A stretch of 64,000 nucleotides of DNA, from the NCBI GenBank assembly GCA_003024175.1, contig MDYQ01000011.1, positions 62,001-126,000 of the forward strand. Direction: 5' to 3'. The notes under the pieces are model-generated. The model was not told the DNA's origin, ran no database searches, and saw only the letters and a list, made by a program, of their open reading frames with translations. The translations under genes and the position numbers were made by a program. This DNA is from Planoprotostelium fungivorum. Taxonomy: Eukaryota; Evosea; Variosea; Cavosteliida; Cavosteliaceae. Below are positions 459 to 63,700 of the stretch, piece after piece. Each line of letters starts with the position of its first letter. Position 1 is the stretch's first letter.

Positions 459-782
459 CTACTCAATGATCTCACGAGGAGGGTTCATTGTCTTTCCAGA
501 TTGTCTGCAAAAGTTAAGCAAATGGTTTAACTTTTGTTCACATGACGAAAAAATCTCACCTAGGTCCAGACTGTCCCTGAGAAGACTTGTTTCCAGTCTC
601 CTTCAAGAAGCTTCTGTAGTATGCAGAGTTGGTGTCGTAGATCATGCTGATGTCTAAATGATCTTTTCTGCAGCCAATCTCAATCACTACAACGAGTGAA
701 TACCCAAATCGAGGTAATCCCAATCAAAGCTTTGACAACAGCCCACTAAGCCGTATGAACCAGAGACGTACGTCTCTTTCAT
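459..782 (-). CDS. Small three-exon protein of unknown function (about 83 aa)
   Basis: No single frame is long here, but three exons splice cleanly on the minus strand. Exon 1 starts M-K-E-T-Y-V-S-G-S-Y-G-L-V. It joins across a GTATTC...GTTGTAG intron to an exon carrying D-H-L-D-I-S-M-I-Y-D-T-N-S-A-Y-Y-R-S-F-L. A second GTGAG...TTTTGCAG intron leads to M-N-P-P-R-E-I-I-E-stop. Frames stay open through both joins and the donors and acceptors are of the local type, so I regard the gene as real. I do not recognise the family and see no TM segment or signal peptide. It is divergent from the gene starting at 884, about 100 bp away, and convergent with the SDR gene. Its first intron ends in the recurrent GTTGTAG motif. 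Confidence 0.55.
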
Positions 783-883
783 CGTGGATATTTACTGGTA
801 CAGTAACGATCGCCCTGTGTTCTGCAATTTTGATCAAACCGAGGTGCACTACAACTCTGTTGTGGGTGGCCAGCATTGCATAG

Positions 884-3527
884 ATGAAGACGTCACTCTT
901 CTTCCTCCTGTCTATCACTGTGGCATTTTGCCTCTTCACAAAAGATGATCTTCGAGCTGCGATTTTGACGGAGAACAGAGAGACAGACCCTTTCCTATCA
1001 CTGAGCTCCAGCGATCTGGCCAAAGACTGGTCACATGAGGGAGAGGAAGACCTCGTCGCCCGAGTAGATCATCTGATACATTCTTTCGAGGAGGGAATCT
1101 ACGTAGAGGTAACACACGTGCTCATTAATAGACTTGGATTATCTCTATCTCGAATAGTAATCCATTAACACTGATCGAATCACGACTCAATCATTGAAAC
1201 GTTACGAAGGTGTGTCTCGTTGGTTTCCCCTCCAGATCCACAGAGAAGAATGCAACCATCATTGACAGAAATCAACTATCAAAATTGTTGGCTGATATCA
1301 CTCTGGACGATACCGTCACTGCATTATACCCCCGTAATCACGATCGACACGAGATCTTCGTCAAGAGGAAATTTCTATTCCAGGTGAGACGTGATGATCA
1401 AATCGTGTACGATGTTCACACGTTACATCGCAGGTGGTCGAGACAGACGACAAATTAGACAGAAAATTAGGAACGATCATCCAAGGCCACCTCTCACAGA
1501 ATCAAAAGGTTCCCATCCAAGCCGTGAGTCTATCATCGAATGACGTCCCTGATGTCCATCAGATCGACGATGTCATTCGTGAAGATTACAATCGCAGTCC
1601 AGATCGCTCGGTTCGAGTCTACCTCATCAACCCACGTCTACCCACAGATAACTACTCTTACACCTACGGACCTACATCCTGCAGCACTCCCCTCTCCCTC
1701 GGCTCTCGCGACGACAGGTACCACCAAGCGATGACGAATGATGACGTCATCACAGATTCCTGTGGATCGATACGAGAGCAGCCGTGAGCCATTGGGGCAT
1801 GAAGGACATCGGTGAGGGTAACATCAACCCAGGATCTCTTCCTTCCACTCGTCAGACTTATCTGAAGTCACACACGGTGGTGAGTGGTGGACTTTTCGTG
1901 AGGAATTGAAGCCAGCAGAACGAATTGATGGTTTCCATGGTGAGGTTCTTGAGAAGAACTTGTGAATACCTGTTGGCGCCCTCGATATCGCATTATCCTC
2001 TACCAGAACAGAGGAACATCTACCTCCATCTCATCATCATGAGTGATCACGCACTCGGTGGCGGGAAATTCGATTGGAATTTCATTCAGAAGCAGGTGAG
2101 AACGAAGTGTCTGACCGATCTACAACTTGCCCAGGTGAAATCTCTGAATATCCCTGGCCATGAGATTCACTTCAAAGAAACCGTTCATTCGTTCAATGAC
2201 TGTGTTGAATGTGACATCGTATACCGACATGCCTTGAAGGTCATCTTCTGATTCTAAAAATAGACCTGACTCGTTGTAGATGCAGAGAATCAAGGAGAGG
2301 ACGTTGTACCAATTGGACTCGAAGGACCTTCAGAAATGGCTGAAACACTTCCGATCTTCTCTGTGGGGCGAGGTCAGAATGCAATCGGTGGGCGTTGTAG
2401 AACGAGTTGTAGATTGAAGACATCAGACGATCACCATTCCCATCTTCCTCTTCGATCTATCGGCTCACGATGTCTTACCCATCGACGGTCTACACCAGGT
2501 AAATTTCATTCGAATTTCACCGAATATCCATCCATCTTCACGTCAAAAAGCTGAAGAGGGACAGAGTGTAGCGTACGAGGGGATGATCGTTGCGTTTCAA
2601 TCTCAGGCTCCCAGTGCAAACACACAGTACAGGTGATGAGTGTGACACGTGTTATTCTTGCTGACGTGTGCAGCTGTGACAGAGATGACGTCAAGATCGA
2701 TACTCGTGATGCAACGAAGAATGTTCTCTCTTCGATATTGGATACTTTATTGGGTATCTCTCCATCGTGAGTCAAATCCCTTCATCGTGATGATCATCAC
2801 ACGATGATCGGGATGCATGATCATCATGATGCTAATGATGAGTAGACACAAGAGATGGAGTACTCTCCACGAGAGAGAAGTGAACGATTACATGTGGTCT
2901 GTCAGTAGTTCCCCTGGATCCATCTTCTCTCAATCCACACAACTCGCATTCACCGTCGCAGATAACAGTGCTCGTCACGTCATCTACACACAACTCGACG
3001 TGACACTCCGCGAATTGAATTACGTACTGAGACATTTCGAGGTGAAGAGTGTCTCGTTGTAGATCGAACTGACACACTGCAGTCACACGGTAGACACCTG
3101 TACGAGACGTTGACTCTATCTGAACAAATCCAATTTTCACACCGTTGGTACGTCCTCCAATTCAAAGTGAGTTCAGCACGATGACCGTAGATTGACTCGT
3201 TGTAGATCGAAGAGGCGGGTAAGCATTTGAGTCACTTTGAATTCGAATCGGCCAACAAGTATGTCACTTCGATGAAGCACGACGTCACTGCTCTCCACGA
3301 CATGGTGCACGTTGCAGGTGATCGTCTACAACTGGTCTTCTCCTGCAGGAAAGAGGTAAGACATGGAATGAAATCAAGAGGGAGCTGATAGAGGACAGAG
3401 TGAAGAGAGTGTCCTCGTGGCATTGGACACGTACACACGGACGGTGATATTGGTATCACCCTTTGTGTTCGCCCTGTGGGTGGCACTGCGGAGGTGTAGA
3501 CCAACAGAGAACAAGACGAAGAGGTGA
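884..3527 (+). CDS. Secretory-pathway type I membrane protein of the At5g58100/At3g28720 family
   Basis: About ten exons. The start ATG at 884 gives a signal peptide (M-K-T-S-L-F-F-L-L-S-I-T-V-A-F-C-L-F). Exon 2 follows at G-I-Y-V-E|V-C-L-V-G-F-P. Later blocks are F-L-W-I-D-T-R-A-A-V-S-H-W-G, I-Y-L-H-L-I-I-M-S-D-H-A-L-G-G-G, T-I-T-I-P-I-F-L-F-D-L-S-A-H-D-V, Y-E-G-M-I-V-A-F-Q-S, and V-N-D-Y-M-W-S-V-S-S-S-P-G-S-I-F. Near the C-terminus a single TM segment (V-I-L-V-S-P-F-V-F-A-L-W-V-A-L) ends in a basic tail. Order and spacing match, from memory, the large plant proteins At5g58100 and At3g28720 ('VNVVLIGF', 'VIPVFVLSL', 'VNDWLWAAG'). These have a luminal domain and one C-terminal anchor, and a role in cell-wall or membrane trafficking is suspected. 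No catalytic residues are known. Several of its introns hold the CGTTGTAGAT motif. Confidence 0.6.
2393..2414 (+). repeat. Tandem pair of motif half-sites in one intron
   Basis: CGTTGTAG and AGTTGTAGAT, four bases apart, in the intron before T-I-T-I-P-I-F-L-F of the At5g58100-like gene. Confidence 0.7.
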
Positions 3528-3633: not shown

Positions 3634-5991
3634 TTAACAAGAAGAGACACCGGTCTGATCTCTGCTGATCCAACCCTTCTCGAAGGCAGCACGGAGAGAC
3701 CAGTTGTCGCCACCCCAAGTCTTCGACCAAGCCCAGAAGGTCCAGCCTCCATCCAAACGGTTGAACTCTGCGATCTGTGCCTGCATGGCGGCCCTTCCGT
3801 CGTTGATACCTCCATTGGACCACTCGTCGATGATTCCCTTCTTTGGGTTCTTGTTCATGTAGTTGTCCACCTGCCGCTTCCTGTCGTTGCGGATGTAGTT
3901 CAACTTCCAGTCGTCACTCTTGCCCTCGAATCCCTGGTACAACAGTTACACTCGATGGTGATGATGTTGGACTCACCCAGATGTGGTACCAGTGCATGGA
4001 CATCCAGACGTTGGTGTACTGCGGTGGGTTCATAAAGTCGGTCCACTCGGGTTGGTCGGTGTTCTGGTTGGTGATGAGAGGGTTGATGATGATGATCGAG
4101 TCCCTGCTGTATCTGACAGAGTGTCATTTTCATTCCTCTATCCTCTCTTCTCACCTGCGGATGATGTTGTAGGCGTTGATGTAGTAGTTCTTGAGGAGGC
4201 CAGTGTCCACCTTGGGCTCGTTCATGAGGCAGATACCAGTGTAAGCCTTCCTTCCTGCGTACCTCTGCAGGTACATCTCCACAGAATCGAGTGTCTGGGC
4301 TTGGTTCTCTCCGTATCTGTCCCAGTAGTGCTGGTGGGAGTTGTCAGGGGGAGCAGAGTGGTCTGTCAAGTCATGTCAGACGTCAAATCTCGCAGAGAAC
4401 TATACCATCTCCGTTCTGAGAACCAGGAGCACCGTGGATGTCTAAGATGATACCGATTCCCCACTTCTCTCCCCAGTCGAAGGCCTTGAGCCTTGTCATC
4501 TACCATACAAAACGGTGCAGTCTCACCTTATCGATGAATTCAACGGCTCCAAAGGCGTAGCCCTTGGTGGGCTCTACGTGCTGCTTCAGGGGAGCATTCG
4601 CAACTCCACCCTGCACGTCGTAGATGTGCCACCATCCCACGGGCAGTCTGACAGGATTGAGATCTCCTGATACCTCTGTCACTCACCTGACGGCATTCAA
4701 GTTGTTGTCCGACATGATCTTGAAGTCATCTTCGGTGATGAAGTTGGACCAATGTTTTCTCATCGCATCGTTGGCTCTTCCACCGAGACATTGCTCCAAC
4801 ATGGTGGTACCGGGAGACTTTGGTAGTCAGACTTACGTGCGTACGTTACGTCTCACGTTGTTGGTGCTGCAACCGTTGTCGTTCCAGACCCACCCGACCA
4901 TCCACCCCTCCAGGATGAACCAAGATCCCAAATTTCCTCCTCTCACGGGAACTCTTCCCGCCTTCACGTCCTGGTACCACGTCAGTTTTCCTCCATCTAC
5001 AACGAGCCACCTCGAGTCTACGTCCCAGGCAGGATTCGGGGGGTGGTTGAGGCTTGTCCTTTGTACCACCGACGTTGCATCTGGCATCCACAGTATCTGA
5101 GGGAGCGGAGGACTTTAGCCAGCAGAGGAAATTGCAGGTGTCATAATCCCAGGCGGCGCACTGCTCGTTACCAGCACACGCCTTCTCACAATCTGGAGCA
5201 CCTTGATAGGGAGTGAAACGGAGGGGCATGCCGAGCATGTCAGCTACATCGGATCAGCATCGAGGTTCATTCGCTGCGATCACCTCCGACTCTGCTCTTT
5301 CCGACGATCCAACTGGGCTTGACGGACAATTTGTTTCGCATGACGGTTCTGCAGTCGTTGGCGTTCGAGTCGCCGTCGGACAGCTTGGCCTTCAGCCAGC
5401 ATTCTCTGCCGCAGGAGTTGGCGACGATACCGACACAGTTGGGAGTGGAGGCACAGATGGCCATGCAATCCAGGGGAGTCGAAGAGTTACCGTCTAACAT
5501 GAGGGGCATGTTTGGAAGATCATCTGAAACACATTAGCGAGGAGATGATGTCGGTGGGGTACCTCCTGGGCGGTCGACTTTGTATTCGAGTCCATAAGAG
5601 TACTTGGGATTGACGTCAGAGGTGAAACAGGCTTCAGCCTGCACGTATGGGCTGGTGAAATGCTTCAACCAGCAGAACTGCTTTCCCAAACAGGTCTCCC
5701 ATGTCCAGGCGGCACACATTGGCTCAGCGTCACATCTTCAAAGAGACGTTTGAGTTCAAGAGACCACCATCTCATTACTCACCTCTGGTGACACATGGCA
5801 GCTGTTCCGTTGATGATTACCAGAGGCATGTTGGGAAGGTCATTCTGGGGCATGTTGATTCCAACCATCCACGGCCCATTGGCGTGGTCGGCGAAAACCT
5901 GAGACGGCGGGTGAGCTCACATGTCTGTGAGAGATTCAAACACCTGAACCGCCAACAATAGACAGCCCAATAAGAGGGTGGTGCTCTTCAT
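3634..5991 (-). CDS. Secreted GH5-type glycoside hydrolase (exo-beta-1,3-glucanase-like) with N-terminal Cys-rich modules
   Basis: The start at 5991 gives a signal peptide (M-K-S-T-T-L-L-L-G-C-L-L-L-A-V). Three PAN/apple-like modules follow, each with C-x-A-W or C-V-G-I near a C-W-L-K: M-C-A-A-W-T-W-E-T-C...F-C-W-L-K, C-V-G-I-V...E-C-W-L-K, and C-A-A-W-D-Y-D-T-C...L-C-W-L-K. The catalytic part opens with V-R-G-G-N-L-G-S-W-F-I-L-E-G-W and continues V-R-L-P-V-G-W-W-H and G-I-C-L-M-N-E-P. The Glu of N-E-P is the expected acid/base of clan A GH5. It ends with G-G-W-T-F-W-A-W-S-K. This is the fungal exo-1,3-beta-glucanase pattern, so the enzyme probably attacks beta-glucan, such as the walls of yeasts or algae eaten by the host. 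The modules may bind carbohydrate or matrix. A 42-nt intron separates the modules from the catalytic domain and holds the recurrent motif at 4995. Confidence 0.8.
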
Positions 5992-8603: not shown

Positions 8604-11396
8604 ATGAGCTTATTGAGGTTGTCAGGGATTCAACGACTCTCACCGTCCGTTCGCCAGACGATACGCTCGACAACACCCCTTCGCAACTTTGCATCACATG
8701 TCAACAAACCGCTTCAGAGTTGCATTGCCTCTCTTCGGGTGATGATTGGTCATCCTTTCGCGTCCAATGTTTCTTCCTCTTCTCGATATCTTCTCACCGA
8801 TGATGATGTGCGATTGACTCTGCGCAGCATTTGAGCTTCTCTTCTTCCAACAGAACATCTCTCACCGTTCCCTCCGTTCTATCACATCCGAAACGATGTT
8901 TCTCGACATCTCCAGAAGCAGATCAGCAAGGTCGTGTTGACACACAGAGATTAGATATGAGCAAGTTTCCCCAATCACACATCCGAAACTTTTCAGTCAT
9001 CGCTCACATTGGTGATTCCATCTCACAACATTCCATCCGTATATTGATCGTATGATGCACAGATCACGGAAAGACAACATTGAGCAATCGATTGTTAGAG
9101 ATGACGGGAACCATCAACACAGAGGAAGAGAAAGGTGCTCCCTTAGATGCCCTGCAGGTGACCACCCTCATCTTCTACGCTCACCATAGATAGGTGGAGA
9201 AAGAGAGAGGAATCACCGTCAAAGCCCACAGTACATCCATGTTCTACAAATACAATGGAGAGACTTATCTCATCAATCTGATCGACACTCCAGTGAGTCA
9301 AAATTCTCAAATTTTCGTTGTCTGATGATCATCCAGGGCCACGTTGATTTTGGTTACGAAGTTTCACGGTCCCTGTACGCCACACAAGGAGGTGATACGA
9401 TTTTTCGAGAAAAGCCCATCTACAACTCTCCCTGACCTTCCCAGCCGTCCTCGTTGTAGATGCATGCCAGGGTGTGCAGGCTCAGACGATGGCCAACTTC
9501 TTCTTGGCTTTCGATGCTGGCTTGGCCATCGTTCCCGTTATCAATAAGATCGACATGCCTTCAGCACAGATCAACCAGGTGCAAGAGGAGTTGATGAAGA
9601 GCTTCGGCATCACAGAAGAAGAGACCCTCTTGGCATCCGGAAAAACAGGAATGGGTGTGGAGAAGATATTACCCGCCATCATCAAGAACGTACCACCGTG
9701 AGAAATTTCGAGTTACGTAGGGAGGTAATGAAGACAGTCCCATGGGAAATCCAGCGGGGCCTCTCAAGGTCTTGTTGTTCGATAGCTCGTTCGATCGATT
9801 CAGGGGTGTCGTGTGTCTGGTCAAAGTCATGGACGGTGTACTGAAGAGAGGTGAGTTTAGGGTTTAACCAGATGAAATTGGCGGGTTGTAGTTGACCGGA
9901 CGTCAGGTCACAAGATCGCATCCGCCTACACGAAACAAGTGTACGAAGTACAAGACGTCGGAATCTTATACCCTACACAATTGAACACCGGTGCACTGTG
10001 GGTCTGTCTACGTCGACATACGATGACGTGTGCAGTTACACGGGCCAAGTGGGGTTCTTGATTGCGGGTATGAAGACAGTGAAAGAAGCACAAGTGGGGG
10101 ACACTCTCTTCGATCCATCTTCACCCGTGGAAGCCTTACCTGGATTCAAACCCTCGAAGCCCATGGTGAGTCGGATGGTGAGTTGTAGATGGAACTGAAA
10201 TCTCGCAGGTTTTCGCGGGGTTGTACCCGGTCGATTCTTCTGACTTGGAGAAATTGAAAGACGCCATGGCCAAGTTGACATTGAACGATTCCAGTGTCAC
10301 ATTACAGAAGGAGACGAGGTGAGATATCTCCTCTGATGGAGACATTGACAGAGAATGTAGTGATGCATTGGGTATGGGCTTTCGATGTGGGTTCCTAGGG
10401 TTATTGCACATGGACGTTTTCACTGAACGGTTGGAACAAGAATATGGACTGACTGTCATCGTCACTGCCCCTACGGTACCATTCAAGAGTGATTCGGTGA
10501 TCTACATCGTTGTAGACTGACGTACGTCAGTGATCGATGCGGAGGGTAACGAGACGATGATCAACAATCCTTCGCAATTTCCGGAGGGTGAAGCGGGCAA
10601 ATACACATACAAGGAGCCCATGGTGAATGCCAGCATTGTAGTCCCCAGCGAGTTTGTCGGACCAGTCCTTGTCTTGTGCGAGGTGATATCTCATCGTCAT
10701 CATCGTGATCGTCATAATGTCATCACCATCATCATCTTTACCGTAGAGCAGGGTCGAAGAGGAGTTCAACAAGACATGAATCACATGGACACCCGCGTCA
10801 TCTTTAAATACAAGTGATCCCATCTCACTCTCCCACCATCACTCATAAGCATCAGACTCCCCCTCAGCGAGATCAACACAAACTTCTTCGATCGTCTGAA
10901 GCAGATCACCTCAGGCTACGCCACGTTAGATTACGAGGAATGTGGTTACGAACCCGTATCTCTGACGAAAGTCAACATCATGATCAACGGTAGCCCGGTG
11001 GATCCACTCGCCCTCTTAGTACCGAGAGAGAGAGCTGAAGACATGGGAAGGGAGATCGTGACGAGATTGAGAGAGCTGATCGACAGGTGAGAGGAGTGAA
11101 GAGAACTTGATAACGATGACAAGGCAACTCTTCGCCGTGGCGATACAAGCTTCCATCGGCAGTCGAATCGTGGCCAGGGAGAGTTTGTCTGCACTGAGAA
11201 AAGATGTGACGGCGAAATGTGAGTGTTCTTCGTTCGGTGGAGCTGAAGGTTGTAGGTTACGGTGGAGACGTGACGAGAAAGAGGAAGCTGCTGGAGAAGC
11301 AGAAGGAAGGAAAGAAGAGGATGAAGATGATCGGTAACGTGGAAGTGAAGCAGGAGGCTTTCTTGGCCGTCCTCAAGCGAGATTAAAACACTTGTA
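8604..11396 (+). CDS. GUF1: Mitochondrial elongation factor 4 (GUF1/LepA GTPase)
   Basis: ATG at 8604 gives a Ser/Arg-rich presequence without acids ([13 protein letters not shown]), a typical mitochondrial import signal. The GTPase core follows: R-N-F-S-V-I-A-H-I split by an intron from [12 protein letters not shown], then [19 protein letters not shown] and N-K-I-D-M-P. LepA-specific parts include [35 protein letters not shown] and, at the end, [21 protein letters not shown]. LepA/GUF1 binds ribosomes and back-translocates or rescues stalled ones. The stop is TAA at 11394-11396. At least ten short introns, several carrying the recurrent motif (9418, 9884, 10181, 10501). The gene is convergent with the DGK gene, whose stop lies 48 bp away. 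Confidence 0.95.
10501..10516. repeat. Full palindrome of the intron motif (TCTACATCGTTGTAGA)
   Basis: Inside a GUF1 intron of about 60 bp (about 10489-10530, depending on the donor). One central base differs from the perfect palindrome. Confidence 0.7.
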
Positions 11397-11443: not shown

Positions 11444-13242
11444 TCACTTTCTCTTCTGTTTGAGAAGGAGGTGACCTTGATTCAACAGAGAGAGATCCAC
11501 AGTGCAAGGTCCTTGCATCCAAGGCTCACCATCGATCTGCGAACGTCAGTGTCACGTGTCAGAATGACAGATGTACCTGCGTGGGAACTTCTCCCACGGT
11601 TAGACGGAGCTGTACATGTTTTCCTTGGGCCAACCGCTTCCCACCTGACAGGTGACTCTTGATGGCTCCCTGTGTGGTCGTCAGTGTGATGAATGTAATG
11701 GAGTCATCATGTTCACCAGATGAAACGAACCCGTGACGGAGATGACCTCCATGAGACCATCACTGTAGGTCGGTGGTTGAAATCTCTGACGTAGATGAAT
11801 CTTTGTCTTTCGATGAAGATAGACAAGATGAGGATGGTTGATGATGATGATGATGATCTCCATCGTGTTTTCGATCGGATGTGAGTCATCTGATTTCACC
11901 TTGCTCTTCTTTCTACCCCACATATCCGCACCTCCCATGTAACTGGGTAGATTGATGATACATAGCCCCTCACTCTTCTCAGGAATGATGATCTCCTTCT
12001 CATCGACCACCAGGGTGACACCCTTCAGTACTGCACTGTGAAACATCTTGTTGCCTCCGATCGTGGCGTAACTGATGCCGTTAGATCGTGATGACAGCGA
12101 AATGTCACCTGAATTTGTTGTACAATCGACTGTTGAATTTCTCCGGATTTGCCGTTCTCCTCCGGTGAAATTCCAAGGCGATGGACGCGTCGATGCCTGC
12201 GAGATGTCAGCGAGATTTCTCCATCTACAACGAACCGATGCTGAAGTAATTATTCATGACGTTGACTTGTTTCAGTTCTTCGTAACCTCCTTCGGGCTTA
12301 GAAGGAGCAATCTTGAGGGACCATCTGATCGGGTGAGTCATGATGGACGTCTTCACATCACTCACCGGTCCAATTTTATGGGAACAGATGCTTCTACCCT
12401 CTTTAAGATGGGAACGATCTTCTGTCCCTCGTAACCTTCATCATCGTCAGACAATCACATCATATGAATGGGATGGATAAGAAATTGACCTGGTCCCCAG
12501 CCGATCGATCTAGCGAGATCGTTACCGGTACCGAGAGGAAGGACGGCGACCGGTGCTGCATTATCGATGTTGAGATCATCGATGGCGCTCAGAACCCAAC
12601 CGGCTGTACCGTCGCCTCCTGCGACGAGAATACGGGCCCTCGGAACGTGTTGAAACATCTGCAGGCTGCGATCGATTTAGACATCGTCGGGTGTGAATGT
12701 CGATCTGTCTAATTGCACAGAGGAAGATAAGGGATCCGTGTCTTCACCCATCTTTCGGCCCTCCATCGGCGAGATCGTGAACTTGGCAAGGATGAAACAA
12801 TTTTCGAAAGAGCTCTAAGAGCGTCACTCCCTGTTGGCCACCGCTCTTTCTGTTGATGAATACGCAGAGAGGATGGACTTCGGCGGGAATCTTGCTCGGG
12901 TCGATCTGTGTTTGTTGTGTCATTCAGAGGGCGATTGGAAATGAGTGAGTACCTTCCAACTGCTCACGTCCTTCCCTTCTTTATCTTGTATGATGATGGG
13001 GGTGACGGCACTGTTGGGTACAATCATTCCTTTCAACTGCTCGTGATATTTGTTTGTCGAGTCGCTGAGGATCGCGTTCCTCTCTTCATTGGATTCTGTG
13101 ATCCGATTAGACCTACGATGGCTGACATGATACCGATGGACATACCGGCCAGAGATTCAGGGCTGATCGAGTGAGGCGGTGAGGCATCTCCATGATGATC
13201 CTTGGCATCAATATCCTCTTCTTTGTTCGGGTTGTTGTCCAT
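11444..13242 (-). CDS. Diacylglycerol kinase, no C1 domains seen
   Basis: The start at 13242 gives an acidic N-terminus with a mildly hydrophobic stretch ([13 protein letters not shown]). The DAGK catalytic domain begins [14 protein letters not shown] and holds the ATP site [12 protein letters not shown] and [10 protein letters not shown]. The accessory domain contains [15 protein letters not shown] (split by an intron), [15 protein letters not shown] and the final [12 protein letters not shown]. The reaction is ATP-dependent phosphorylation of diacylglycerol to phosphatidic acid, which ends DAG signals. I find no Cys/His-rich C1 domain or EF hand, which resembles the short plant DGK clusters rather than animal or Dictyostelium DGKs. 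The intron at 12223-12232 starts directly with GTTCGTTGTAGAT. Confidence 0.9.
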
Positions 13243-16229: not shown

Positions 16230-16388
16230 AGTCACGAAAGTGTTTGATTCTGGCCGGAGTGGAGCAACCCTTTCGAGGGTCTCTACGGTGAAGGCAGGCG
16301 AGTGTCTGACGAGGCTGTGGTGTACGGAGTATGGCCGTACCCAGCCCAGGTAGAACATCGGCGTTCCTTCTTCACTCGTGTGCATTGA
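16230..16388 (+). CDS. Possible 3' end of a plus-strand gene inside the duplicated region
   Basis: An open frame reads E-W-S-N-P-F-E-G-L-Y-G-E-G-R-R-V-S-D, then A-V-V-Y-G-V-W-P-Y-P-A-Q, and ends at a TGA (16386-16388). An AATAAA-like site follows near 16424. The second copy of the repeat keeps this frame with few changes, which mildly favours coding. Upstream exons cannot be placed with confidence. A Cys-containing minus-strand frame over the same bases (G-D-W-S-Q-C-T-R) competes with it. Confidence 0.3.
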
Positions 16389-45435: not shown

Positions 45436-47235
45436 TCAACCTCTCTTCTTCAAGTCTGCATCGATAGCCTTGATCCTCTCCAATAGAGTGGGATGAGAGT
45501 GGTGGTAGGCAGAATAATAAGGATCCACCACATACATCGACAAGTTCTCCTCTGAGATCTTGATGAGAGAAGTCTTCAACTGGTTACCGTAGCCTTGGTT
45601 GACGGCGAATGTATCTGTGAAGGATGATTTAGAGGACGTTTCTGTGGTTGTTGGACCCACCAGCTTGGTACTCAAAGGCCCTGGAGATGATGTGCATGAC
45701 GAAACTGAAAAAGTGTTCTACGGGGGAGTAGATGTAAGAGAACAATGTCATTCCAATGAAAACTGGAGGGGTCAGTCATGATGGAGGTGTGGGTGACGAT
45801 CATGATGGGCAGTGATGCAGAGGTGAGATGAAAAATGATGATGCATCATCACTTGATGGCTGATCGAAACCGAAACTGGAGAACATGTCGGGTGTGTGCA
45901 GAGTCTTTCCTAAGATGAAGCAGAAGATGAGATAGTAAGTGAAGGCGATGATCAAGTTGATGACCGTGTGTCTCATCTTCCAGTGTCCCAATTCGTGTCC
46001 CAAAATGGCCACCAGCTCTTCCTTATCGACCTGGACGCGTCAATCTACAACGAACCATTTCATGACATCTCACCTGCTTCAACAGCGTGTCGTAGATGAC
46101 AATTCTCTTGTTCTTGAAGAATCCATAGAAGTATCTGCTGACGTGTGAAATTTCATCGAAGATTCATGATTCGTTTCTCACGCGTTCGAATGGGCCGATC
46201 TGGCCGATCCATCTACAACGTACAACTTGGTCAGAGGAAAATCGTTCTGAACTCGTCAGATCTACAACGCAATCTCTTCACCTTTTTCGCCAGTTCATAT
46301 ATGGCCGTTCTGACTTCGCCGTCTTCCAATTCGGTGAACTTGTTGAACCTGACCAAATCATTGAGCCCATCTACAACGAGACATCTCCTCACAGTGGGGC
46401 GATGAGTGTGGGGTAGATGGTCAGCATGACGAACGAAATCGTCACCGTAAATAACCACAAGTCTAAAGAGAGTTAAGGACATTCGAAAGTCAACAGAAAG
46501 ACATACATATCCAGAAGTTTTCTCCTCCCCACTCGATGACTTTGAGGGCTGCCACCAAGAGAGGCACTCCGATGACTGGGCGTTTCAATCGAATGAAGCG
46601 TTGTAGATGCTCACCGATGAGAAGGGCGAAGCTCTTGAGTTGATCGGTCACCCACAGCTTCCACGTCTGCTTGTTGAACCCGAAAGACTCTTCCAAGACG
46701 AACGTGTTGTACAACGTGAAGGGCAGTTGGATGACAAAGTTGTAGACAGTCGAGACGATCATGTAGATGATGGCTCGAAGGATCTGGAACATGTGAATGA
46801 GTGAGGCGTAAGATGCATCAAACCTGATCGTCTCTGGGAAGTCCAAAATGATCTAACCAGATGCCACAGTATGTCCACAGGAGAGGCATGAGACCATACC
46901 GCAGGACAAAGAGGGAGTGGATAGTGCTGACTGTACTGCTGACGAGATCGAACCGTCTGTGAATCATGAGATAACGTGGATGGAAGAAGTTCTCACTCGT
47001 TAGCACGGCCATAGGCTTGAGATTTGGTAAACTTCTCTTGAGTGACGACACCTTCTAATTGAGGTGGCCTCTCTTTTATCTTCAGATTAGAATACTGACG
47101 TAATATGATATATGTCTCTAGGGCGTAGATCGCCAACATAAAGCCTGCACGTGATCATATCAGATGTTGCAACGACATGACGATCGTGCACGATCATGAA
47201 TACGAACCTTGGAAAGCCTCTGAAAAGGGGAACAT
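45436..47235 (-). CDS. STE24: STE24/ZMPSTE24 CAAX prenyl protease 1 (zinc metalloprotease)
   Basis: The start at 47235 (M-F-P-F-S-E-A-F-Q) joins to G-F-M-L-A-I-Y-A-L-E-T-Y-I-I-L-R-Q-Y. Several TM segments follow, including I-V-S-T-V-Y-N-F-V-I-Q-L-P-F-T-L-Y-N-T-F, E-E-S-F-G-F-N-K-Q-T and L-Y-V-V-D-G-S-A-R-S-A-H-S-N-A. The zinc site is I-L-G-H-E-L-G-H-W (H-E-x-x-H) with the third ligand in F-E-Y-Q-A|D-T-F-A-V, split by an intron. It ends L-L-E-R-I-K-A-I-D-A-D-L-K-K-R-G. STE24 sits in the ER and nuclear membrane and cuts the aaX from prenylated proteins. The LKB1-like kinase here ends in a possible CaaX box, a conceivable substrate by inference only. Four introns carry the recurrent motif (46045, 46260, 46369, 46599). 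Confidence 0.95.
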
Positions 47236-47892: not shown

Positions 47893-48098
47893 TACAATTG
47901 ATCCATCAGAGCACGAGAGGGTAAGAGCTGGACAGTTCGGCACTCGGCACCCACATATCGGTCTAGACCTCTCGAATTTTGGATCGAATTTGATGATGAT
48001 ATGTACTCGACGAATTACTTCGTTGTAGATGGGAATGATGTCAACATGAAGCTGAGCAGCCGAATCTATTTCGGGTACAACACCATCATCACGATACG
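47893..48098. promoter_or_regulatory. Divergent upstream region of the IFT144 gene
   Basis: 206 bp between two divergent starts. It carries one clear copy of the recurrent motif (CGTTGTAGAT at 48021-48030), one of the few copies outside an intron, unless the minus-strand gene has a further 5' exon here. No X-box or TATA box was identified. Confidence 0.35.
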
Positions 48099-53184: not shown

Positions 53185-56100
53185 TCATGCTCTCTTTAAT
53201 CCCATTCTCGTTCTCTTCGCTTGGTACTCGTCCATGTTCTTCTTGACAAAATCGATGATCATCTGGTACTGCTGTGCTTCCTTGTTGATTGGTTTGCAGA
53301 TCTCTCTGTGATTGTAATCCAACTTTTGGAAAGTGTGCTGGCTGCCCACGAAGCCAGGGTTAGATGATTCATCGGAGACTACCTGGAATCTTCTCAGAAA
53401 TGTCGAGGAGATTTCCTCACCTGAAAGCAAGTCGGACCCAGACAGGTCTTACCCTCTCCAAAACTCAGCGTCGATATGTGCGGTGCCATCTACAACGTCA
53501 GACAAGTCATCAAATCCCTCCACCTTTTGAAATTGATCGTTCAACTCTTCCAATCTGATACGGTCGTACAATTCTAATGCAGTTGACGTTGCTCGAAATA
53601 GAACATTCACGTTCTGCGCATATTTGATCAGATCTGAACCTACGTAACGTACGTCAGATACTCTTTTATCTCTGTAGTCTCACCCCTGTGTGGCGTGGAG
53701 AAGAAGACAATTCCCAGTGTGTTTTCCAATAGATCTCTGTACTCCTTGTGCGTCGATGCGTACCTCATCATCTCCTTGGTCACTAAACCTCCGAAGCTGT
53801 GTACGACGAATATGACTGGTCTCTCCCCAACTTGTGCCATCTTCAATTTGTCGATGATTTCTTCACTCTACAACGTTGTAGTTAGGGGTACATTTGAGGA
53901 GAGTGAGATCACCTGCTGTTGTAGAGGTAGAGTGTTTCCACTCCATTTCGTGAGCCAGCTGTCATACGATATCGACAAGATCCGACAATTTGGAAAAGTC
54001 TCTGAAATCTCGTCAGACTTTCCTAAACAATCCTCCGAGTTTTCACCTGGCATCCAGTCACGAGGCCAACACACGAAATCCTCCATCTTCTGATCGTCCT
54101 TCACCAGCTCTTTGATCATCTACAACGAGTCAAACATCGATCTACAACTTCCCCTCACCTGCTCGTCCGATCGACTGACCACTTGTGGTTTCTCACTTTC
54201 AGACAGCGCTGCCCTCAGCGACGACAAGTAAGACATCATGGCATCTAAATCGTACGATATTTCGTCTCTCGCGGCCTCGCTCGCCTCCGTCTCTTCCTTC
54301 TCGTTCGGTTTGTTCTGTGGAAGTTGTACCCAAGTAGTCTGATAGTGGCCGGTCACGCCGTGAATGAAGACGATGTCGAAATCGATCGTTTTCGTTGCTT
54401 GAGTGGGCTCCCCGGGTAGTGGGTAGAGGAGGTACACACCGTCACTGTATTTCGGCCCGTCGTAGCCTGAGTGTGTCAATCGAAATTCCGATGAAATTTC
54501 GCGGAGATTCACCGGCGTTCAACAGGGTAGCGCGGGCTCTCATTGCTTCCGATGTCAATAGAAAATCGTCGGCGTGGATCCACCTGTTCGAGTGAGACGA
54601 TGACACACACTCTGTCTCACTCTTTGATCTGCACGGTAAGCAGAGACACTTGCTCGGCTGTGATGTTGGGTTCTTTCGATACCCAATTGGCCATGGCTCG
54701 TGCGGCCTGTCTCTGTGTCTTGATGTCTTCTATCCTGGATAATTCGGTGATGAGATGCCACCAGTAGTCGTTGTAGATGGGCTGTCGTGCGTTGATGCGC
54801 TCCAGTACCTGATGGAGAATTGGTGGGTTGTAGATGGAGGTGACGTACCTTGTCGTGCGTGGTGAAGTTGGCGACCACTTTGGCGATTTTTCTGGCGGAT
54901 TCCTCCCTGTACTTTTCACCGATAGTTCCTTGAATATTCTTCGAATTGCTCCTGAGAATGTCTAGGAAAGTGTTCAGACTTTCCGTTCGGATCCAGATGT
55001 CAGCTGCCAAGTCCTCTGCAATTCATCAATCTACAACGCGAACGCCGACAAATAATGAAGATTCTCACCGTGTAACGTCAAGTTCGATATTGCTCTGAGG
55101 TATTGCAATTGAAGCTGTTTCAAAATTAGATTCATCTTATTTATATGAAATCACCTCATAGAGTTTTTCCTTCTCTGGACTATTCAGTAGCAATTGTCGC
55201 TCGACTGCAGAAAAAGCTCTGAAGAATGAAGACAGAAAAGTTGGATTTCTCGATAAGAAAGAACTGGCTCTCGTCATTCCCTCTCTACAACGTTGTAGAT
55301 CACCTGGATGCATCACCAAACCCCAAATAAGCCACACAGGATACGGCAGAACATTGTAGATCGAGCTCATCCCAGGGTAACCATGGTTTGTCAGGCATGG
55401 GCCGTCTGACACCGTACAGATCATTTTCTCCCGCCATAATCCACTTCAACAAGATTCCGAGAAAATTCCTCTCCACCATCTTCAGTTGGATCGGTTCTAC
55501 CACGATGAGAATGCTACCGGGATTTGGGGGAAATTTCGACAAATTCTCTCACCCAAGCGGCAGGAGGCGATCTCGTTGACTGCCTTGGCCACTTGTCTCT
55601 GCATGTTCATTGTAGATGAACTCATCCTCCCATCCATCGTGGCATATTCTGACAGCCTCGACAAGATGTCCAGAGCACCAGCATCCACAATCTGCACCAT
55701 CATGTCGTCTACAACCAGTCAACGGATTCCGATCGATTTTTTTTCATATTTAAAATGTGGCTCACCGGTAGCGGAGAGGGAGATCTGTGAGATGGTCAAG
55801 GCTAAAAATAGACCGAAATCGACGTCTTTTGAGTGCTGAATGGGTGAATTGTAGACGGCGGATCTGCATTGAGATAAGCTGTTCAATAGTTTCATTCCTG
55901 AGATACGTCAGTGAAATTTCGAATCACGCATCTCACCTCCGTCCCGAATGAAAGCCATGGCAGTATCTGTACATCTCAGAAATTTCTCAGAAATCTCTCT
56001 TGTACTCACTGCTCTTGGCTTGTTGTAGTGTGATTTCGGATATCGCAGTACAGCATTTATACAATTTCTCCGATTGTTCCGGTTTCAGCGCGTTGTAGTA

Positions 56101-57244
56101 CGACGTACCAAAAATCGGCTGGTCCAACAGGAACAATATCCCCTTCACTCCCACCCCCTTGATCATCTACAACGGTCAATTCACCATCTACAACTCGTTT
56201 CTCACTTCTTTTCCTCCTTCGGATTCACCCAGCTCACCCAAAGTGATAGCTACGTAACGTGTGATGCTGAGTTGAGTCGGCAGATCTCTATGGACGTTCC
56301 TTGATTGGTAATCTAAGATATTAGACAGGGCTTTCGATAGGTCGTAGTCGAGCTGTCAGGGGTGAGCAGGGGTACGAACGTTTGAGATGTTTCACCAGAA
56401 TGCGACCTCCGGGTGGCTGTGATAGATTTGCTATGATCTTGGCCACGTTGTGATAAGCGTCTTCTATTCTCATCTTCTGCTTGTCCAAATTGTCCACCTT
56501 CTTGCGAGATCGATGTGAGATGATCACATGATGACACTCATCTGATGTCTCACCTCTCCTGTTGATACTGGGTATTTGGCTTCGATATCGTCTACAACGG
56601 GTTGATTCAAGATCCATCGAATTATCTTCGGATTTTCTAATAAAAGGCCTCGAGTGCTCTCGCTGACTGCAGTGAGATTGGCTAATTGATGTAACAACAA
56701 TCGTCTCATCAGCTGCATGGTTCAGAGGACGCAAGAAATGACGAGATCGAATGTGATCACCATGTGAGAGCCTGCGGTGTTCTCTAGAGAAATCATCAAG
56801 GGGAGAGTGATCTGAGTGAAGGCCCAGTCGTTGTAGAATAGGATGACCAATGTGCCGCCGACAAAGATGGCACCCAGCACCCAAAGCGATGCGAGGACCA
56901 ACCTGAGCTGGTCAATCATCATGGACAAAATCATCGTCTTACTTTCGTTTCGATGTTTCTGTCACGACTATGTCTTGAGGATCAGAAGTCTCTTCTTTTT
57001 TGTTCTCTTCAGAGGAATCATTCTTCGTGTCTTTGCCATCTGCTTGGCCCTTCTGAACAGAATACGATCGAACAGACGGAATCGATCGTTCAGATCTGGA
57101 GTTGAAGCAGATCGTGCGAATAGAATGTGAGATTATCGTGCGTGTTGGTATTGACAAAGCGGTGGATTTCAGTGGGATGGGTAAGGAGGTTGATTTACAC
57201 TTGATACGTGACGTGGATTGAGCTAACGCTCTGATAGACCACAT
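53185..57244 (-). CDS. SERAC1-like protein: mitochondrial presequence, armadillo/HEAT-like repeats, alpha/beta-hydrolase
   Basis: The start at 57244 gives an acid-free presequence (M-W-S-I-R-A-L-A-Q-S-T-S-R-I-K-C-K). A TM segment follows an intron: L-V-L-A-S-L-W-V-L-G-A-I-F-V-G-G-T-L. The middle has alpha-helical repeats (I-V-D-A-G-A-L-D-I-L-S-R-L, Q-R-Q-V-A-K-A-V-N-E-I-A). The C-terminal hydrolase has I-D-F-D-I-V-F-I-H-G-V-T-G-H, the nucleophile in V-V-H-S-F-G-G-L-V and S-T-P-H-R-G. This layout matches SERAC1, which remodels phosphatidylglycerol at ER-mitochondria contacts. Related orphan hydrolases with NB-ARC or TPR parts exist, so the name is by overall architecture. At least eight introns carry the recurrent motif, including two tandem pairs. 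Confidence 0.8.
53868..53881. repeat. Perfect 14-bp palindrome at a splice acceptor
   Basis: CTACAACGTTGTAG ends a SERAC1-like intron on the minus strand. The exon begins S-E-E-I-I-D-K-L-K. Confidence 0.8.
54118..54149 (-). repeat. Tandem pair of motif half-sites in one intron
   Basis: On the gene strand AGTTGTAGAT then, 12 bases on, CGTTGTAGAT, whose TAG is the splice acceptor before M-I-K-E-L-V-K-D. Confidence 0.75.
55284..55299. repeat. Perfect 16-bp palindrome of the intron motif
   Basis: TCTACAACGTTGTAGA lies right after the GTGA donor of a minus-strand SERAC1-like intron. Confidence 0.85.
56165..56195 (-). repeat. Tandem pair of motif half-sites in one intron
   Basis: Same order as at 54118 (AGTTGTAGAT, 11 bases, CGTTGTAGAT), again with the second TAG as acceptor before M-I-K-G-V-G-V-K. 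Confidence 0.75.
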
Positions 57245-60306: not shown

Positions 60307-60792
60307 GGACGAGACAATCGAGAAAAAGAATGGATGCATGATTGTCTAACTGTTTTATTTATCGGAGGGAGCTAGATGCCAGGAGCACCTGCAATAGGCA
60401 TCAATAAACGTTTTCGATTGTCTGATTAGACATCGTAATATTGATTCAGTTGACAAGAAATATGTTATCATGGTTGATCAGACGCAAATTACAGACATCA
60501 TTTGATTTGGATAATGGAAACCTATGGGAACTGTCCCTCACCTCTTCGTCTCTCCCTTGCTTGATGAATGACTGATCTGTTTCTGAAATCAAATAAGATA
60601 TCTTCATGACAATCCGTCATTTAGGGGGTGTTGTAGACGTCACATCCATTTTGAAATTCACATCGGTTGCAGTCTTTCATCATCCAAGGTAAGCTATATC
60701 AGCGAATACTGTCCCCTTTTTATTATTATTTAGCATCTTCTTCGTTCGTCATTCACTTGTTTTCCGATCCATCTTAACCGACACATTGTAAG
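60307..60792. other. Intergenic stretch, nothing recognised
   Basis: About 485 bp, A+T-rich near 60,710-60,735. It should hold the 3' UTR of the coiled-coil gene (an AATAAA near 60,401) and the promoter of the PH gene. No ORF, RNA gene or repeat seen. Confidence 0.4.
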
Positions 60793-63700
60793 ATGGCGAG
60801 CATGGAAGAAGTAGAATCCATGCTCAGGAGTGCATTCAGAGACACGGAAACAATGAACCGTAAATTAGATGAATTTGAGACGACAAAGAGCCGAGAGACA
60901 CTGAATGAGGTATGTCCCAGCTCTTCATCTTCCGTCACTCCTTCTTCAGCCTCTCCCTCATCTGATTTTTCTCACCATTTTATAGGTCACCGCCATGCTC
61001 AAAGTCGTCATGCAGCAGCTCAAAGACATCCGAGCCAACACCGACGCCAAGAGAGAATACGGACAGATGCAAACCGAGTTGGGAGTCAAAATGAAAGAGC
61101 TCGTCGCCCGTATCAAGGCCGGTGCCAATCTTGTCTCCTCTGCCCCGGTCGAAAAGGTGATCACGCCTCGAACTCCATCCTCCGTGACATGATTCCAGCA
61201 ACCCGAGGCGACCGACCGATCGAAGCGTGTCTCAGCAACATTACCTTCTAATCCAGCCGCATCTCGAACGTCATTCATGGGAAACAGTAGAAGACCCGCC
61301 GGTGCAGCCAACATGGGTAACCCCAATCGACAGAGTCTCCGCGAGAAAGAGACCTTCGATCATCTCAAGGTCCCCCTCAAAGGTGCACGATGAAACGTGA
61401 CATCATCGTGACGTCATCAGGTTACATGAAGAAGCAGGGAGAAGACATACTCAAACAGTGGAAGAAGAGATTCTTTCAGATCGCCGCGCCGAAAGCGGGA
61501 GAATCTTACCTTCTCTATTATTCGAAAGACGAGAGTTCAGAGAAGGAGAAGGGTTTCATCGATCTGGGAACAGTCACCAAGGTGAGCCAATCGGCCGCAC
61601 GGGAGCCACACGGGAACCAATCGGCCGCAGGTCATCGACGTCGTGGGCCAGAGCATCGATCTAGACACGGGCAGCCGAGTCTATCACCTCCAAGCCAACA
61701 GCAGGGGTGGGTCACGTGACCCCGTAACTCGAAATCTCACACCCCATCAGAAGACCACAAGTACTGGCTGGACGGTCTGAGAGGTTGGGTGAAGGCCATA
61801 GAGAGTGAAGGTGGTGCATTCATCACTGGTTCACGCACGAGTGAGATCTACACGACAGAACCGAGTGTACAAGAGTACACCAGTCGCCCCCGCACGGGCA
61901 GTTCAGCGAACGAAGACAAAGTCAGGGTAGAGAGGGAGGCCAGAATGTCGTACGAGGTGGGTCACGTGACTCGAAATTTCCGTGGGTTTTTGTGACGTGG
62001 AGTAGAAACAAGCAGAGGAAGAGAGGACGAGAAAGAGAGAAGAAGAAGCGAGGAGGGAAGAAGATAGAAAGAGACACGAGGAACATCAAAAAGAGCAAGA
62101 AGAAAGGATGAAGAAACAGAGAGGTGACACACATCATCCATCACGATCATCATCACGATCATCATCATCATTGACAAGTGATGATAACCTTACCTTGTGA
62201 CAGAGAAGGAGCTGGCAGCCGAGCAGGAGAGGGAGAGGCTAGAGAAAGAAGATAAGATGAGAAACGAAGAGGCCATGATGAACCGCGCGAGAAGGGAAGC
62301 CGAAGAGAAGAAGCAAGAAGAACTCCTCCGCATCAAGAGAGAAGAAGAAGAGAGACAGAGGTGAGTCTACACCGTTGTAGATGGACCGTGACCAATTTTT
62401 CTCAGGACAGAAGAAGAAGCGAGACAGAGACAGTTGATGATCGAGGATGACAAGAGGAGAAGAGAAGAGAAGGAGAGGATGGAGGAAGATGAACGTCGTC
62501 GGTACGTAACACCAAATTTCCACCGATTTTCCACGACATTTCCATCCTGATTCACGAGCAGCATCGCAGAGAAGGTCAGACAAGACGAAGAGAAGAAGAA
62601 TGCCGCAGAGAGGGCTAAATTAGAGAGTGCAGCGAAACAGAAGAAGGTGGAATTAGAGGAACAAGAGGAAGAACAGAAGACACCAGCCTCTCCCACAACA
62701 GTGAAACGAGCTCCAGGTTTAGAGAGAGCCTGGAAGGCTGAGGGTGAGAGGAGCTATTTATAGGTGCTCCAGAAGAATGACGGAAGAATAGGATTCAAGC
62801 CCAGAATGTTGTCTGTGGGCTCCCAGAGGGGGCTGAACGTTACGGCTTCGCCTGGAAGCTCACCGGTGGACAGTTTCGTGTCGGGGTGAAGCTGCAACTG
62901 AGTCCAAAAATAGAATTGATGCGTTGTAGATCGCCACCCACCTCCACGAACGACCGCGAAGTGACGGAGTTGCGAGAGCAGGTGATTTTTCGAAGAATAT
63001 TCTCTCTACAACGACTGAATACGAGTAGGTGAAACAGTTGACAGACAAGGTCCACGAATTGGAAGACACCATCGCAAAAGACATCTCAAAAGATGTCTTT
63101 GTAAAACTAGAACTCGAGCTGCGAAGGATGGTGAGAACATTCCACCCTCTACAACGCTCAACTCCCCCAGGAAAAAGAATACGAAGAATTACGCAACCGC
63201 TATCGATTAGACGAAGAACGATTCAGAATGGCAGAAGAGAAGAGAGAGCAAGAACAGAAGACATGCAAAGAATTAGAAGAGGAAAACCGAGGCAAAGACA
63301 ACCACATCAGGAGGCTGCAGAAGAAGCTGAAGGCTGCGAGAAAGGAAGAACCAGAGAGTACATCAGCTAGCGTGGGGTCGTATTCAAATATGACCGCCGC
63401 AGCCAATTCCGGCGCTCACTCAAGCATGAACGGAGGAGGGGCCGAGCAGGGAGACGTACAGAAGGACAGGTGAGAGGGGGTGGGAGGTCGAGAGTGACTC
63501 GTTGTAGATTGATTTCCAAGCTGAGAGAGACGATATGGGCTCACCAACAGCAGAACTCGGCTCTGAGTGTGGAGGTAACATATAGATCTCTCTTTTGGTT
63601 GGCTGAATTTGAAACAGATGAGCCGAGAAGCCTCCGCCTTTCTGATGAAGATGAGAGTGAAGGATGAGGTCATCAGACAACAGGAGAGGGAGATGAAGGC

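What the first reader, a model, noticed from the sequence alone, without database searches (positions are those of the whole stretch)
687..63509. A recurrent intron motif, CGTTGTAGAT / ATCTACAACG, about 39 intronic copies in 64 kb
By eye I find the motif inside inferred introns at 687, 2272, 2393, 2405, 3055, 3198, 4995, 7509, 9418, 9884, 10181, 10501, 12223, 18694, 20124, 20914, 24323, 24661, 26970, 30393, 33423, 46045, 46260, 46369, 46599, 53868, 54118, 54140, 54826, 55029, 55284, 55707, 56165, 56186, 62366, 62922, 63005, 63148 and 63500. A 10-mer should occur by chance far less than once in 64 kb per strand. Copies sit in unrelated genes on both strands, and the gene-strand orientation is mostly CGTTGTAGAT. 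Only a few copies (13282, 37715, 48021) are intergenic. Introns otherwise share no sequence. It could be a splicing enhancer, a protein-binding site placed in introns, or the conserved end of a former introner-type element that seeded many introns. I know of no named element like it.
Basis: partly seen in the sequence, partly recalled or inferred. Interest (0 to 1): 0.85.

Follow-up and report, generated by a model that had tools for sequence, protein, structure and literature searches.

The report
Ten-letter DNA word in long genes
A small eukaryotic genome repeats one exact ten-letter DNA word about 8,000 times, in introns and even, through codon choice, in exons, on both strands and (in introns) mostly deep inside long genes, which looks like a DNA-level signal of unknown kind rather than an intron or splicing signal.

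Summary
The word is real. CGTTGTAGAT occurs 7,984 times in the 36.9 Mb genome against 62 for the word read backwards, and 27 times in the window. It is not an intron element. Lone intron copies away from the 3' splice site face both ways (26 sense, 22 antisense). Copies that form the acceptor (GTTGTAG|AT) are as frequent as base composition predicts (23 of 49 against 46%). Coding sequence holds 21 exact copies against 2.5 after synonymous shuffling; Val-Val-Asp is spelled GTTGTAGAT 9 of 26 times against 0.28 expected. A fixed-spacing palindrome, CTACAACGTTGTAG, occurs 750 times. Intronic copies avoid genes under 1.5 kb (1 of 285 introns against 87 of 1,007) and the first kilobase of long genes; two rarer palindromes share part of this trend. 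Best reading: a site for a two-fold symmetric DNA-binding protein acting in the bodies of long genes. Factor and role are inferred. Splicing-enhancer and introner readings are not supported.

The parts
2272..2281 (+). exact copy, intron near its 3' end
3055..3064 (+). exact copy, inside a 41-nt intron
3198..3207 (+). exact copy spanning the 3' splice site: intron ends GTTGTAG, exon starts AT
   Evidence: intron from 3167, 39 nt
4995..5004 (-). exact copy, sense, inside an intron of the minus-strand GH5-like gene (name by eye)
9452..9461 (+). exact copy in an exon of EF4/LepA, codes Val-Val-Asp (GTT GTA GAT)
12223..12232 (-). exact copy, sense, early in a 39-nt intron
20124..20133 (-). exact copy at a 3' splice site of the DIS3L2-like gene
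20914..20923 (-). exact copy at a 3' splice site of the DIS3L2-like gene
21243..21252 (+). exact copy in a DIS3L2-like exon, antisense, codes Ser-Thr-Thr
24323..24332 (-). exact copy at a 3' splice site
30400..30409 (+). exact copy, right half of the palindrome CTACAACGTTGTAG, in a 42-nt intron of a ClpB/Hsp104-like gene (name by eye)
37715..37724 (-). exact copy at the predicted 5' end of a gene (model says exon; probably upstream of the true start, by eye)
46043..46052 (-). exact copy in an intron of the CAAX protease gene
46211..46220 (-). exact copy in an exon of the CAAX protease, codes Val-Val-Asp aligned with Val-Val-Glu of a solved homologue
46260..46269 (-). exact copy in a 35-nt intron of the CAAX protease gene
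46369..46378 (-). exact copy in an intron of the CAAX protease gene
48021..48030 (+). exact copy, intergenic
53488..53497 (-). exact copy in an exon, codes Val-Val-Asp
53868..53881 (-). palindromic core CTACAACGTTGTAG forming the 3' end of an intron of a minus-strand gene (outer base not exact)
54118..54127 (-). exact copy in an intron that also holds a second, one-mismatch copy (54140)
54769..54778 (+). exact copy in an exon, antisense, codes Ile-Tyr-Asn
55029..55038 (-). exact copy in an intron
55291..55300 (+). exact copy, half of a palindrome in a 40-nt intron of a minus-strand gene
56165..56174 (-). exact copy at a 3' splice site; a one-mismatch copy lies in the same intron (56186)
62373..62382 (+). 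exact copy with a near-palindromic left half, intron
62922..62931 (+). exact copy at a 3' splice site
63500..63509 (+). exact copy at a 3' splice site

Best explanation
The word is a DNA-level recognition site, most likely for a sequence-specific protein that binds as a two-fold symmetric dimer (full site about ATCTACAACGTTGTAGAT; one full half-site, CGTTGTAGAT, is the common form). The site is kept by selection inside gene bodies. Introns carry most copies because they are free to change, exons carry it where synonymous codons allow, and the 3' splice site often carries it because the acceptor already supplies much of TAG|A. Intronic copies concentrate in long genes and more than about 1 kb from the start codon, so the bound factor probably acts on the chromatin or transcription of long transcription units, for example by setting nucleosome order or blocking cryptic initiation beyond the reach of the promoter. 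Shown: word, excess, strand symmetry, palindrome with fixed spacing, codon-choice signature, intron gradient and gene-length effect on ab initio models. Inferred: a protein factor, selection as the cause, and the role.
For: Excess 7,984 against 62. Sharp recognition: single-base changes at positions 4 to 8 of the 10-mer are at most about 3 times over expectation, against 66 times for the exact word. Palindrome CTACA-N4-TGTAG found 24 times at spacing 4 and 0 to 2 times at each of the other 40 spacings tested; 750 palindromes CTACAACGTTGTAG genome-wide, reversed 0. Strand balance of lone intron sites, 26 sense and 22 antisense. Coding sequence: 21 exact against 2.54 (maximum 6 in 200 shuffles); VVD 9 of 26 against 0.28, STT 6 of 23 against 0.33, IYN 11 of 17 against 4.92. 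Motif codons align without a gap across them in EF4, CAAX protease and DIS3L2. Introns with a site: 1 of 285 in genes under 1.5 kb, 87 of 1,007 in longer genes; within genes of at least 2 kb, 9 motif introns in the first kilobase against 19.8 (sd 3.3) after within-gene shuffling, or 5 against 16.9 (sd 3.4) with the other gene models. Genes rich in it are also rich in two other palindromes, GAAATTTC (Spearman 0.50) and TGACGTCA (0.37), across 66 genes.
Against: No binding protein was identified and no binding data exist here. The sharpness of the word is more than usual for a transcription-factor site (my judgement) and could fit another machinery. Exonic excess shows no clear near/far gradient once synonymous expectation is taken out (octamer near 13 against 4.35, far 39 against 10.0), so the gradient rests on introns. 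The gene-length trend is not unique: introns with TGACGTCA-type words are 2 of 264 in short and 30 of 794 in long genes, GAAATTTC 0 and 21, and CATCATCA-type words also rise with distance, so part of the trend may be a general property of such introns. One of the control words, GTTGAAGA, also exceeds its synonymous expectation, 28 against 16.9, maximum 26. Nine chaperonin (CCT/Hsp60) loci carry the word only at the genome average (4 exact in 17.9 kb), so a plain housekeeping link is not seen. Intergenic copies are few (9 core hits in 42 kb), unusual for a regulatory factor. All gene models are ab initio, and the TAG in the word bars one sense frame from exons.
Confidence: 0.5

Rival explanations
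1. Molecular drive: the word is favoured in itself, as with bacterial DNA-uptake sequences, by some biased uptake, repair or conversion, and accumulates wherever it is tolerated.
For: Exact short word on both strands, in coding and non-coding DNA, sometimes as inverted pairs, which resembles DNA-uptake sequences (title and abstract start of PMC1939737 seen in the listing; details recalled).
Against: Few in intergenic DNA (0.21 per kb against 1.13 in introns away from the acceptor; intergenic labels are the least certain), nearly absent from introns of short genes and depleted near starts; tolerance alone would not give this. No such system is known to me in a eukaryote.
Confidence: 0.15
2. Intronic splicing enhancer or a special 3' splice-site signal read in RNA.
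For: 31 of 1,718 introns end exactly in GTTGTAG, the commonest 7-mer at intron ends; TGACT(C or G) precedes the octamer in 13 of 30 acceptor-type sites; branch-like sequence in 74% of acceptor-type introns, 46% of introns with an internal copy and 35% of introns without the motif.
Against: Balanced strands elsewhere in introns; acceptor share 23 of 49 against 0.46 expected from composition; splice-site scores of introns that carry it are not weaker; strong excess in exons.
Confidence: 0.1
3. Relics of introner-type transposons whose terminal repeats are CTACAACG...CGTTGTAG.
For: Inverted pairs in some introns; 72 of 177 introner families that could be judged have terminal inverted repeats (passage of PMC9860276).
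Against: With the word masked, similar pairs among 101 motif introns fall from 184 to 1 of 5,050, while pairs among the other introns stay at 168; intron length is the same with and without (median 42 and 42 in one model set, 42 and 43 in the other); exonic copies align without a gap across the motif codons, 3 of 3 examined; pairs have one fixed 4-base spacing, not intron-length spacing.
Confidence: 0.04
4. Ordinary intronic transcription-factor site: introns and exons of this compact genome serve as enhancers and the word is the site of one abundant activator or repressor.
For: Palindrome, codon-choice signature, and gene-level company with TGACGTCA and GAAATTTC.
Against: Depleted near gene starts and sparse between genes.
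Confidence: 0.2

Closest known systems
Intron-mediated enhancement motif TTNGATYTG of Arabidopsis (PMC6760150, abstract and passages read)
   Same: A short word over-represented in introns that, by experiment there, also acts from exons and without splicing.
   Different: That motif is promoter-proximal and such introns have no effect more than about 1 kb downstream; the present word is depleted in the first kilobase and in short genes. No expression effect was tested here.
Exonic transcription-factor sites that direct codon choice ('duons'; Stergachis 2013, title seen only in the reference list of PMC6760150, content recalled)
   Same: Codon choice in exons is bent to make a DNA site.
   Different: Here one word dominates (9 of 26 VVD tripeptides) in a 36.9 Mb genome, with introns richer than exons and intergenic DNA poor.
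Periodic An/Tn clusters (PATCs) of C. elegans introns (abstract start in the listing; details recalled)
   Same: Non-coding DNA property of gene interiors linked to whole genes.
   Different: PATCs are periodic A/T runs; this is an exact 10-mer with a palindrome.
Bacterial DNA-uptake sequences (abstract start in the listing; details recalled)
   Same: Exact short word, two strands, coding and non-coding, inverted pairs.
   Different: Eukaryote; depends on gene length and distance from the start; no uptake evidence.
Introners (PMC9860276, passages read)
   Same: Sequence shared by many introns of unrelated genes.
   Different: Only the word is shared; the exonic copies examined arose by substitution.

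Membership tests
Splicing enhancer | acts in one orientation of the transcript | tested here: not met
   lone intron sites away from the acceptor 26 sense, 22 antisense, p=0.67; other gene models 28 and 21, p=0.39
Splicing enhancer | confined to introns | tested here: not met
   21 exact in CDS against 2.54 in synonymous shuffles
Splicing enhancer | changes splicing when mutated | not testable with these tools
   needs a minigene or RNA-seq
Introner | whole-intron sequence similarity between unrelated genes | tested here: not met
   1,718 introns all against all: with the word masked, 1 of 5,050 motif-motif pairs is similar at E 0.01, against 184 unmasked
Introner | arises by insertion | tested here: not met
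   no gap across the motif codons in EF4, CAAX protease and DIS3L2 alignments, 3 of 3 examined out of 21 exonic copies; the EF4 alignment has an insertion a few residues upstream, put down to a model error
Intron-mediated enhancement motif | enriched in promoter-proximal introns | tested here: not met
   depleted in the first kilobase; 0 of 91 first introns against 94 of 1,818 introns overall, in models that merge some genes
Intron-mediated enhancement motif | raises mRNA level | not testable with these tools
   needs a reporter
DNA-binding protein site | strand symmetry and two-fold symmetric full site with fixed spacing | tested here: met
DNA-binding protein site | a protein binds it | not testable with these tools
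   no binding data
Exonic TF site (duon) | codon choice departs from expectation so as to make the site | tested here: met
   VVD 9 of 26 against 0.28; STT 6 of 23 against 0.33; IYN 11 of 17 against 4.92; LQR 1 of 24 against 0.09; no excess for Cys-Arg as TGT AGA, 9 of 48 against 9.1
DNA-uptake-sequence-like drive | enriched wherever tolerated | tested here: not met
   intergenic 0.21 per kb against 1.13 in introns (intergenic labels uncertain); 1 of 285 introns of short genes
DNA-uptake-sequence-like drive | biased uptake or conversion | not testable with these tools
   needs experiment or population data

The most novel reading that the evidence does not exclude
A eukaryotic gene-body address word: a single exact DNA word (perhaps with a few companion palindromes), kept by selection on intron sequence and on codon choice alike, that marks or organises the interiors of long genes away from their promoters. 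Such a signal would be a layer of genome organisation between promoter and terminator for which I know no named counterpart.
Probability: 0.35. Interest if true: 0.9.

Novelty: new variant of a known kind. Interest (0 to 1): 0.72.

Why it matters
If the word is a binding site, one DNA-level constraint shapes both intron sequence and codon choice across thousands of sites in this genome, and in introns it depends on gene length and on distance from the start. That would make a question hard to test elsewhere (what organises long transcription units away from promoters) testable with one footprinting experiment and one pull-down with a defined 18-bp bait. It is also a warning for annotation: a strong 'intron motif' may owe its place to tolerance and not to splicing.

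Tried and rejected
Splicing role: strand balance, splice-site scores and composition-expected placement were tested and spoke against it. Introner relic: intron BLAST with and without masking, lengths and protein alignments spoke against it. Housekeeping against ciliary genes: the idea came from the window; 9 chaperonin loci (17.9 kb) had 4 exact copies, the genome average, and 4 kb of dynein had no exact copy and two octamer-level matches, so it is left open. Gene-body CpG methylation: CpG observed/expected is 0.885 in far introns and 0.865 in near ones, with no drop. Promoter-proximal enhancement: the intron distribution is the opposite. Viral source: 0 matches of the 18-base palindrome in viral contigs. 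RNA families: no Rfam hit at gathering score in the window; no tRNA found by ARAGORN with the bacterial code. Exonic near/far gradient: not supported after synonymous control. Pfam on the longest exon of 20 genes, most of them without intronic motif hits, gave few and mixed families: 11 of the 20 exons had a family at E up to 0.01. Organism: unnamed; I suspected a protosteloid amoeba from recall and looked at listings and passages, but nothing here tests it, so no claim is made. One tally (positions relative to splice sites) counts matches twice where both sub-patterns hit; class sizes are taken. A coding-score cut-off was set too high to keep genes; one search repeats that analysis.
Full report
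Setting. The window is bases 62,001-126,000 of contig 39 in an unnamed eukaryotic genome of 36,859,091 bases in 471 contigs. No relatives and no annotation are held. I read 304 kb for gene-level work: the window, the first 200 kb of contig 1 and four 10-kb stretches, plus nine chaperonin loci and two dynein stretches used only for counting. That is under 1% of the genome, so gene-level statements are from a sample; only the pattern counts are whole-genome. The genome has dynein motor sequence (13 exon-level matches) and IFT140/IFT172-type sequence. I do not name the organism.

The count. CGTTGTAGAT occurs 3,973 times forward and 4,011 times reversed-complemented in the genome; the word read backwards occurs 27 and 35 times. 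In the window it is 13 and 14. In 304 kb it occurs 89 times, while 100 letter-shuffled words average 0.6, with a maximum of 9. It ranks first among 10-mers in the 264 kb first examined (76 against 2.35 under a fourth-order Markov model).

Gene models. With no RNA-seq, I wrote a semi-Markov gene finder, trained on the sequence itself, and used two settings. G2 tends to merge genes (1,849 introns, modal length 40, commonest donor GTGAG). G3 splits more (1,302 introns, 123 genes of at least 150 residues). Acceptor scoring used only the last four intron bases and the first exon base, so the motif could influence it only through GTAG|A. The models are good where tested: EF4/LepA matches a solved homologue over 592 of 599 residues, RhoGAP, FMO and DIS3L2-type domains appear in a merged model, and CAAX protease and DIS3L2 stretches match solved structures. 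Merged genes and mistaken small exons remain, and the EF4 model carries one spurious insertion.

20 of 39 listed intronic positions are exact, 16 have one mismatch and 3 have two; 36 of 39 fall in introns in one model set or the other.

Where copies lie. Using nonamers around GTTGTAGA and the G3 models, 153 hits fall as 29 at the 3' splice junction, 37 intron sense, 35 intron antisense, 14 exon sense, 29 exon antisense and 9 intergenic. That is 1.59 per kb in introns (1.13 without the junction class), 0.22 in exons and 0.21 between genes. Intergenic assignment is the least certain.

Why the acceptor. 31 of 1,718 introns end in GTTGTAG exactly, the commonest 7-mer at intron ends, and 24 of those 31 have AT as the next exon bases, against 240 of 1,687 for other introns. 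This looks like a splice signal, but intron ends already supply AG and often A next. From the base composition of motif-free introns, 46% of sense sites are expected at the junction, and 23 of 49 were observed (other models: 43% expected, 23 of 51). Lone sites elsewhere in introns are balanced: 26 sense and 22 antisense, p = 0.67 (other models 28 and 21, p = 0.39). Splice-site scores of introns that carry an internal copy are equal or better. A branch-like sequence is commoner in the acceptor class (74%) and slightly so in introns with an internal copy (46%) than in introns without the motif (35%); in the acceptor class I read it as the branch point in its usual place.

Exons. Synonymous codon shuffling within each gene gives 2.54 expected exact copies (maximum 6 in 200 shuffles); 21 are observed. 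The reversed word gives 0 against 0.36. Val-Val-Asp is spelled GTT GTA GAT in 9 of 26 cases, expected 0.28 from codon use; Ser-Thr-Thr as TCT ACA ACG in 6 of 23, expected 0.33; Ile-Tyr-Asn as ATC TAC AAC in 11 of 17, expected 4.92; Cys-Arg as TGT AGA shows no excess, 9 of 48 against 9.1. Both strands contribute: sense 8 against 0.17, antisense 13 against 2.35 (G2). TGACGTCA (13 against 5.07) and GAAATTTC (13 against 4.34) show a weaker excess, CACGTG none, and one control word, GTTGAAGA, a mild one (28 against 16.9, maximum 26), so small excesses should not be trusted; the motif octamer stands at 55 against 15.1. In EF4, CAAX protease and DIS3L2 the coded residues align with solved homologues without a gap across the motif codons, for example YVVDGS against YVVEGS, so these copies arose by substitution. 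These are 3 of 21 exonic copies.

Not an insertion. Among 1,718 introns, 184 of 5,050 pairs of the 101 motif introns are similar at E 0.01; with the word masked, 1 pair is left, while pairs among the other introns stay at 168.

Form of the site. Single changes at positions 4-8 of the 10-mer are at most about 3 times above expectation, against 66 for the exact word; position 1 tolerates A (11 times) and position 10 C (20 times). The palindrome CTACA-N4-TGTAG is found 24 times at spacing 4 and 0-2 times at each of the other 40 spacings from 0 to 40. CTACAACGTTGTAG occurs 750 times in the genome, its reverse 0. The acceptor-type string CTGACTCGTTGTAGAT occurs 227 times on the two strands, its reverse 0. 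Lone intron copies extend to TGGA on the right. To the left, the palindrome half (23 of 76 intron octamers) and, at acceptors, TGACT(C or G) (13 of 30) stand out; the rest is mixed.

Gene length and distance. In G3, 1 of 285 introns in genes under 1.5 kb carry a site, against 87 of 1,007 in longer genes (Fisher p = 5e-9); with only the better-scoring models it is 1 of 149 against 74 of 726 (p = 1.5e-5); in G2 it is 0 of 183 against 90 of 1,522. In genes of at least 2 kb the share of introns with a site rises from 0.033 (first 500 nt) to 0.155 (2.0-2.5 kb). Shuffling sites among introns within each gene gives 19.8 (sd 3.3) in the first kilobase, and 9 are observed; with G2 it is 5 against 16.9 (sd 3.4). 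Over whole genes the control words CACGTG and CTGAC hardly change with gene length, and TGACGTCA goes from 0.13 to 0.21 per kb where the motif goes from 0.05 to 0.69 (G3). In introns alone, though, TGACGTCA-type words (2 of 264 in short, 30 of 794 in long genes) and GAAATTTC (0 and 21) follow the same trend, the E-box does not (7 and 22), and CATCATCA-type words rise with distance. So the motif is the strongest case of a trend shared by some other words. After synonymous control the exonic excess has no clear gradient. Genes differ strongly: 36 of 70 genes with ten or more introns (G2) have no hit where 15.2 are expected, and exon hits concentrate in genes with two or more intron hits (32 of 43, in genes with 40% of coding sequence). 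Genes rich in the word are also rich in GAAATTTC (Spearman 0.50) and TGACGTCA (0.37) across 66 genes, with no tendency to share the same introns.

Reading. Strand balance, a fixed-spacing palindrome, codon choice and origin by substitution point to recognition of double-stranded DNA, not RNA and not insertion. The near absence from introns of short genes and depletion near starts argue against simple tolerance. I therefore favour a dimeric DNA-binding protein acting in gene bodies (confidence 0.5); the factor, and whether it orders nucleosomes, blocks cryptic starts or does something else, is inference. An ordinary intronic enhancer site (0.2) and a drive process (0.15) stay open.

Literature. 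A search for the letters of the word found 494 papers holding at least one of five strings; 20 were listed, and by titles and abstract starts none is about such a motif. Searches for intron motifs in Amoebozoa (25 papers, 10 listed) and for palindromic gene-body motifs (48 papers, 8 listed) listed nothing like it by title and abstract start. I read the abstract and passages of PMC6760150 and passages of PMC9860276; other papers were seen only as listings or passages. No claim of absence from print goes beyond these searches.

Noticed in passing
304 kb examined; window included: Two other palindromes, TGACGTCA (often TGATGACGTCATCA) and GAAATTTC, are over-represented, also in coding sequence beyond synonymous expectation, and keep company with the motif by gene.
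   Followed up: partly
introns far from gene starts, 304 kb: CATCATCA/GATGATGA words are enriched in introns more than 1 kb from the start codon (103 far against 22 elsewhere).
   Followed up: partly
contig 1, 1-200,000 (L009-L028): Only 7 of 49 exact copies lie in the first 110 kb, while 37 lie at 138-194 kb.
   Followed up: no
contig 1, about 143,500-148,400 (L023): Predicted gene that looks like telomerase reverse transcriptase by eye; 6 of its 31 introns carry the motif. No family search was made.
   Followed up: no
contigs 73 and 272; contigs 17 and 38: Chaperonin-family matches with identical scores on different contigs, perhaps retained haplotypes or recent copies.
   Followed up: no
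264 kb examined (contig 1 and window): The 12-mer CGAGAGACCCAC occurs 12 times against 0.07 expected; its core AGAGACCC sits mainly near gene starts and in short genes in one model set. Not explained.
   Followed up: no
window 16370-16980, minus strand: Two predicted introns share 30 identical bases, suggesting a local duplication.
   Followed up: no
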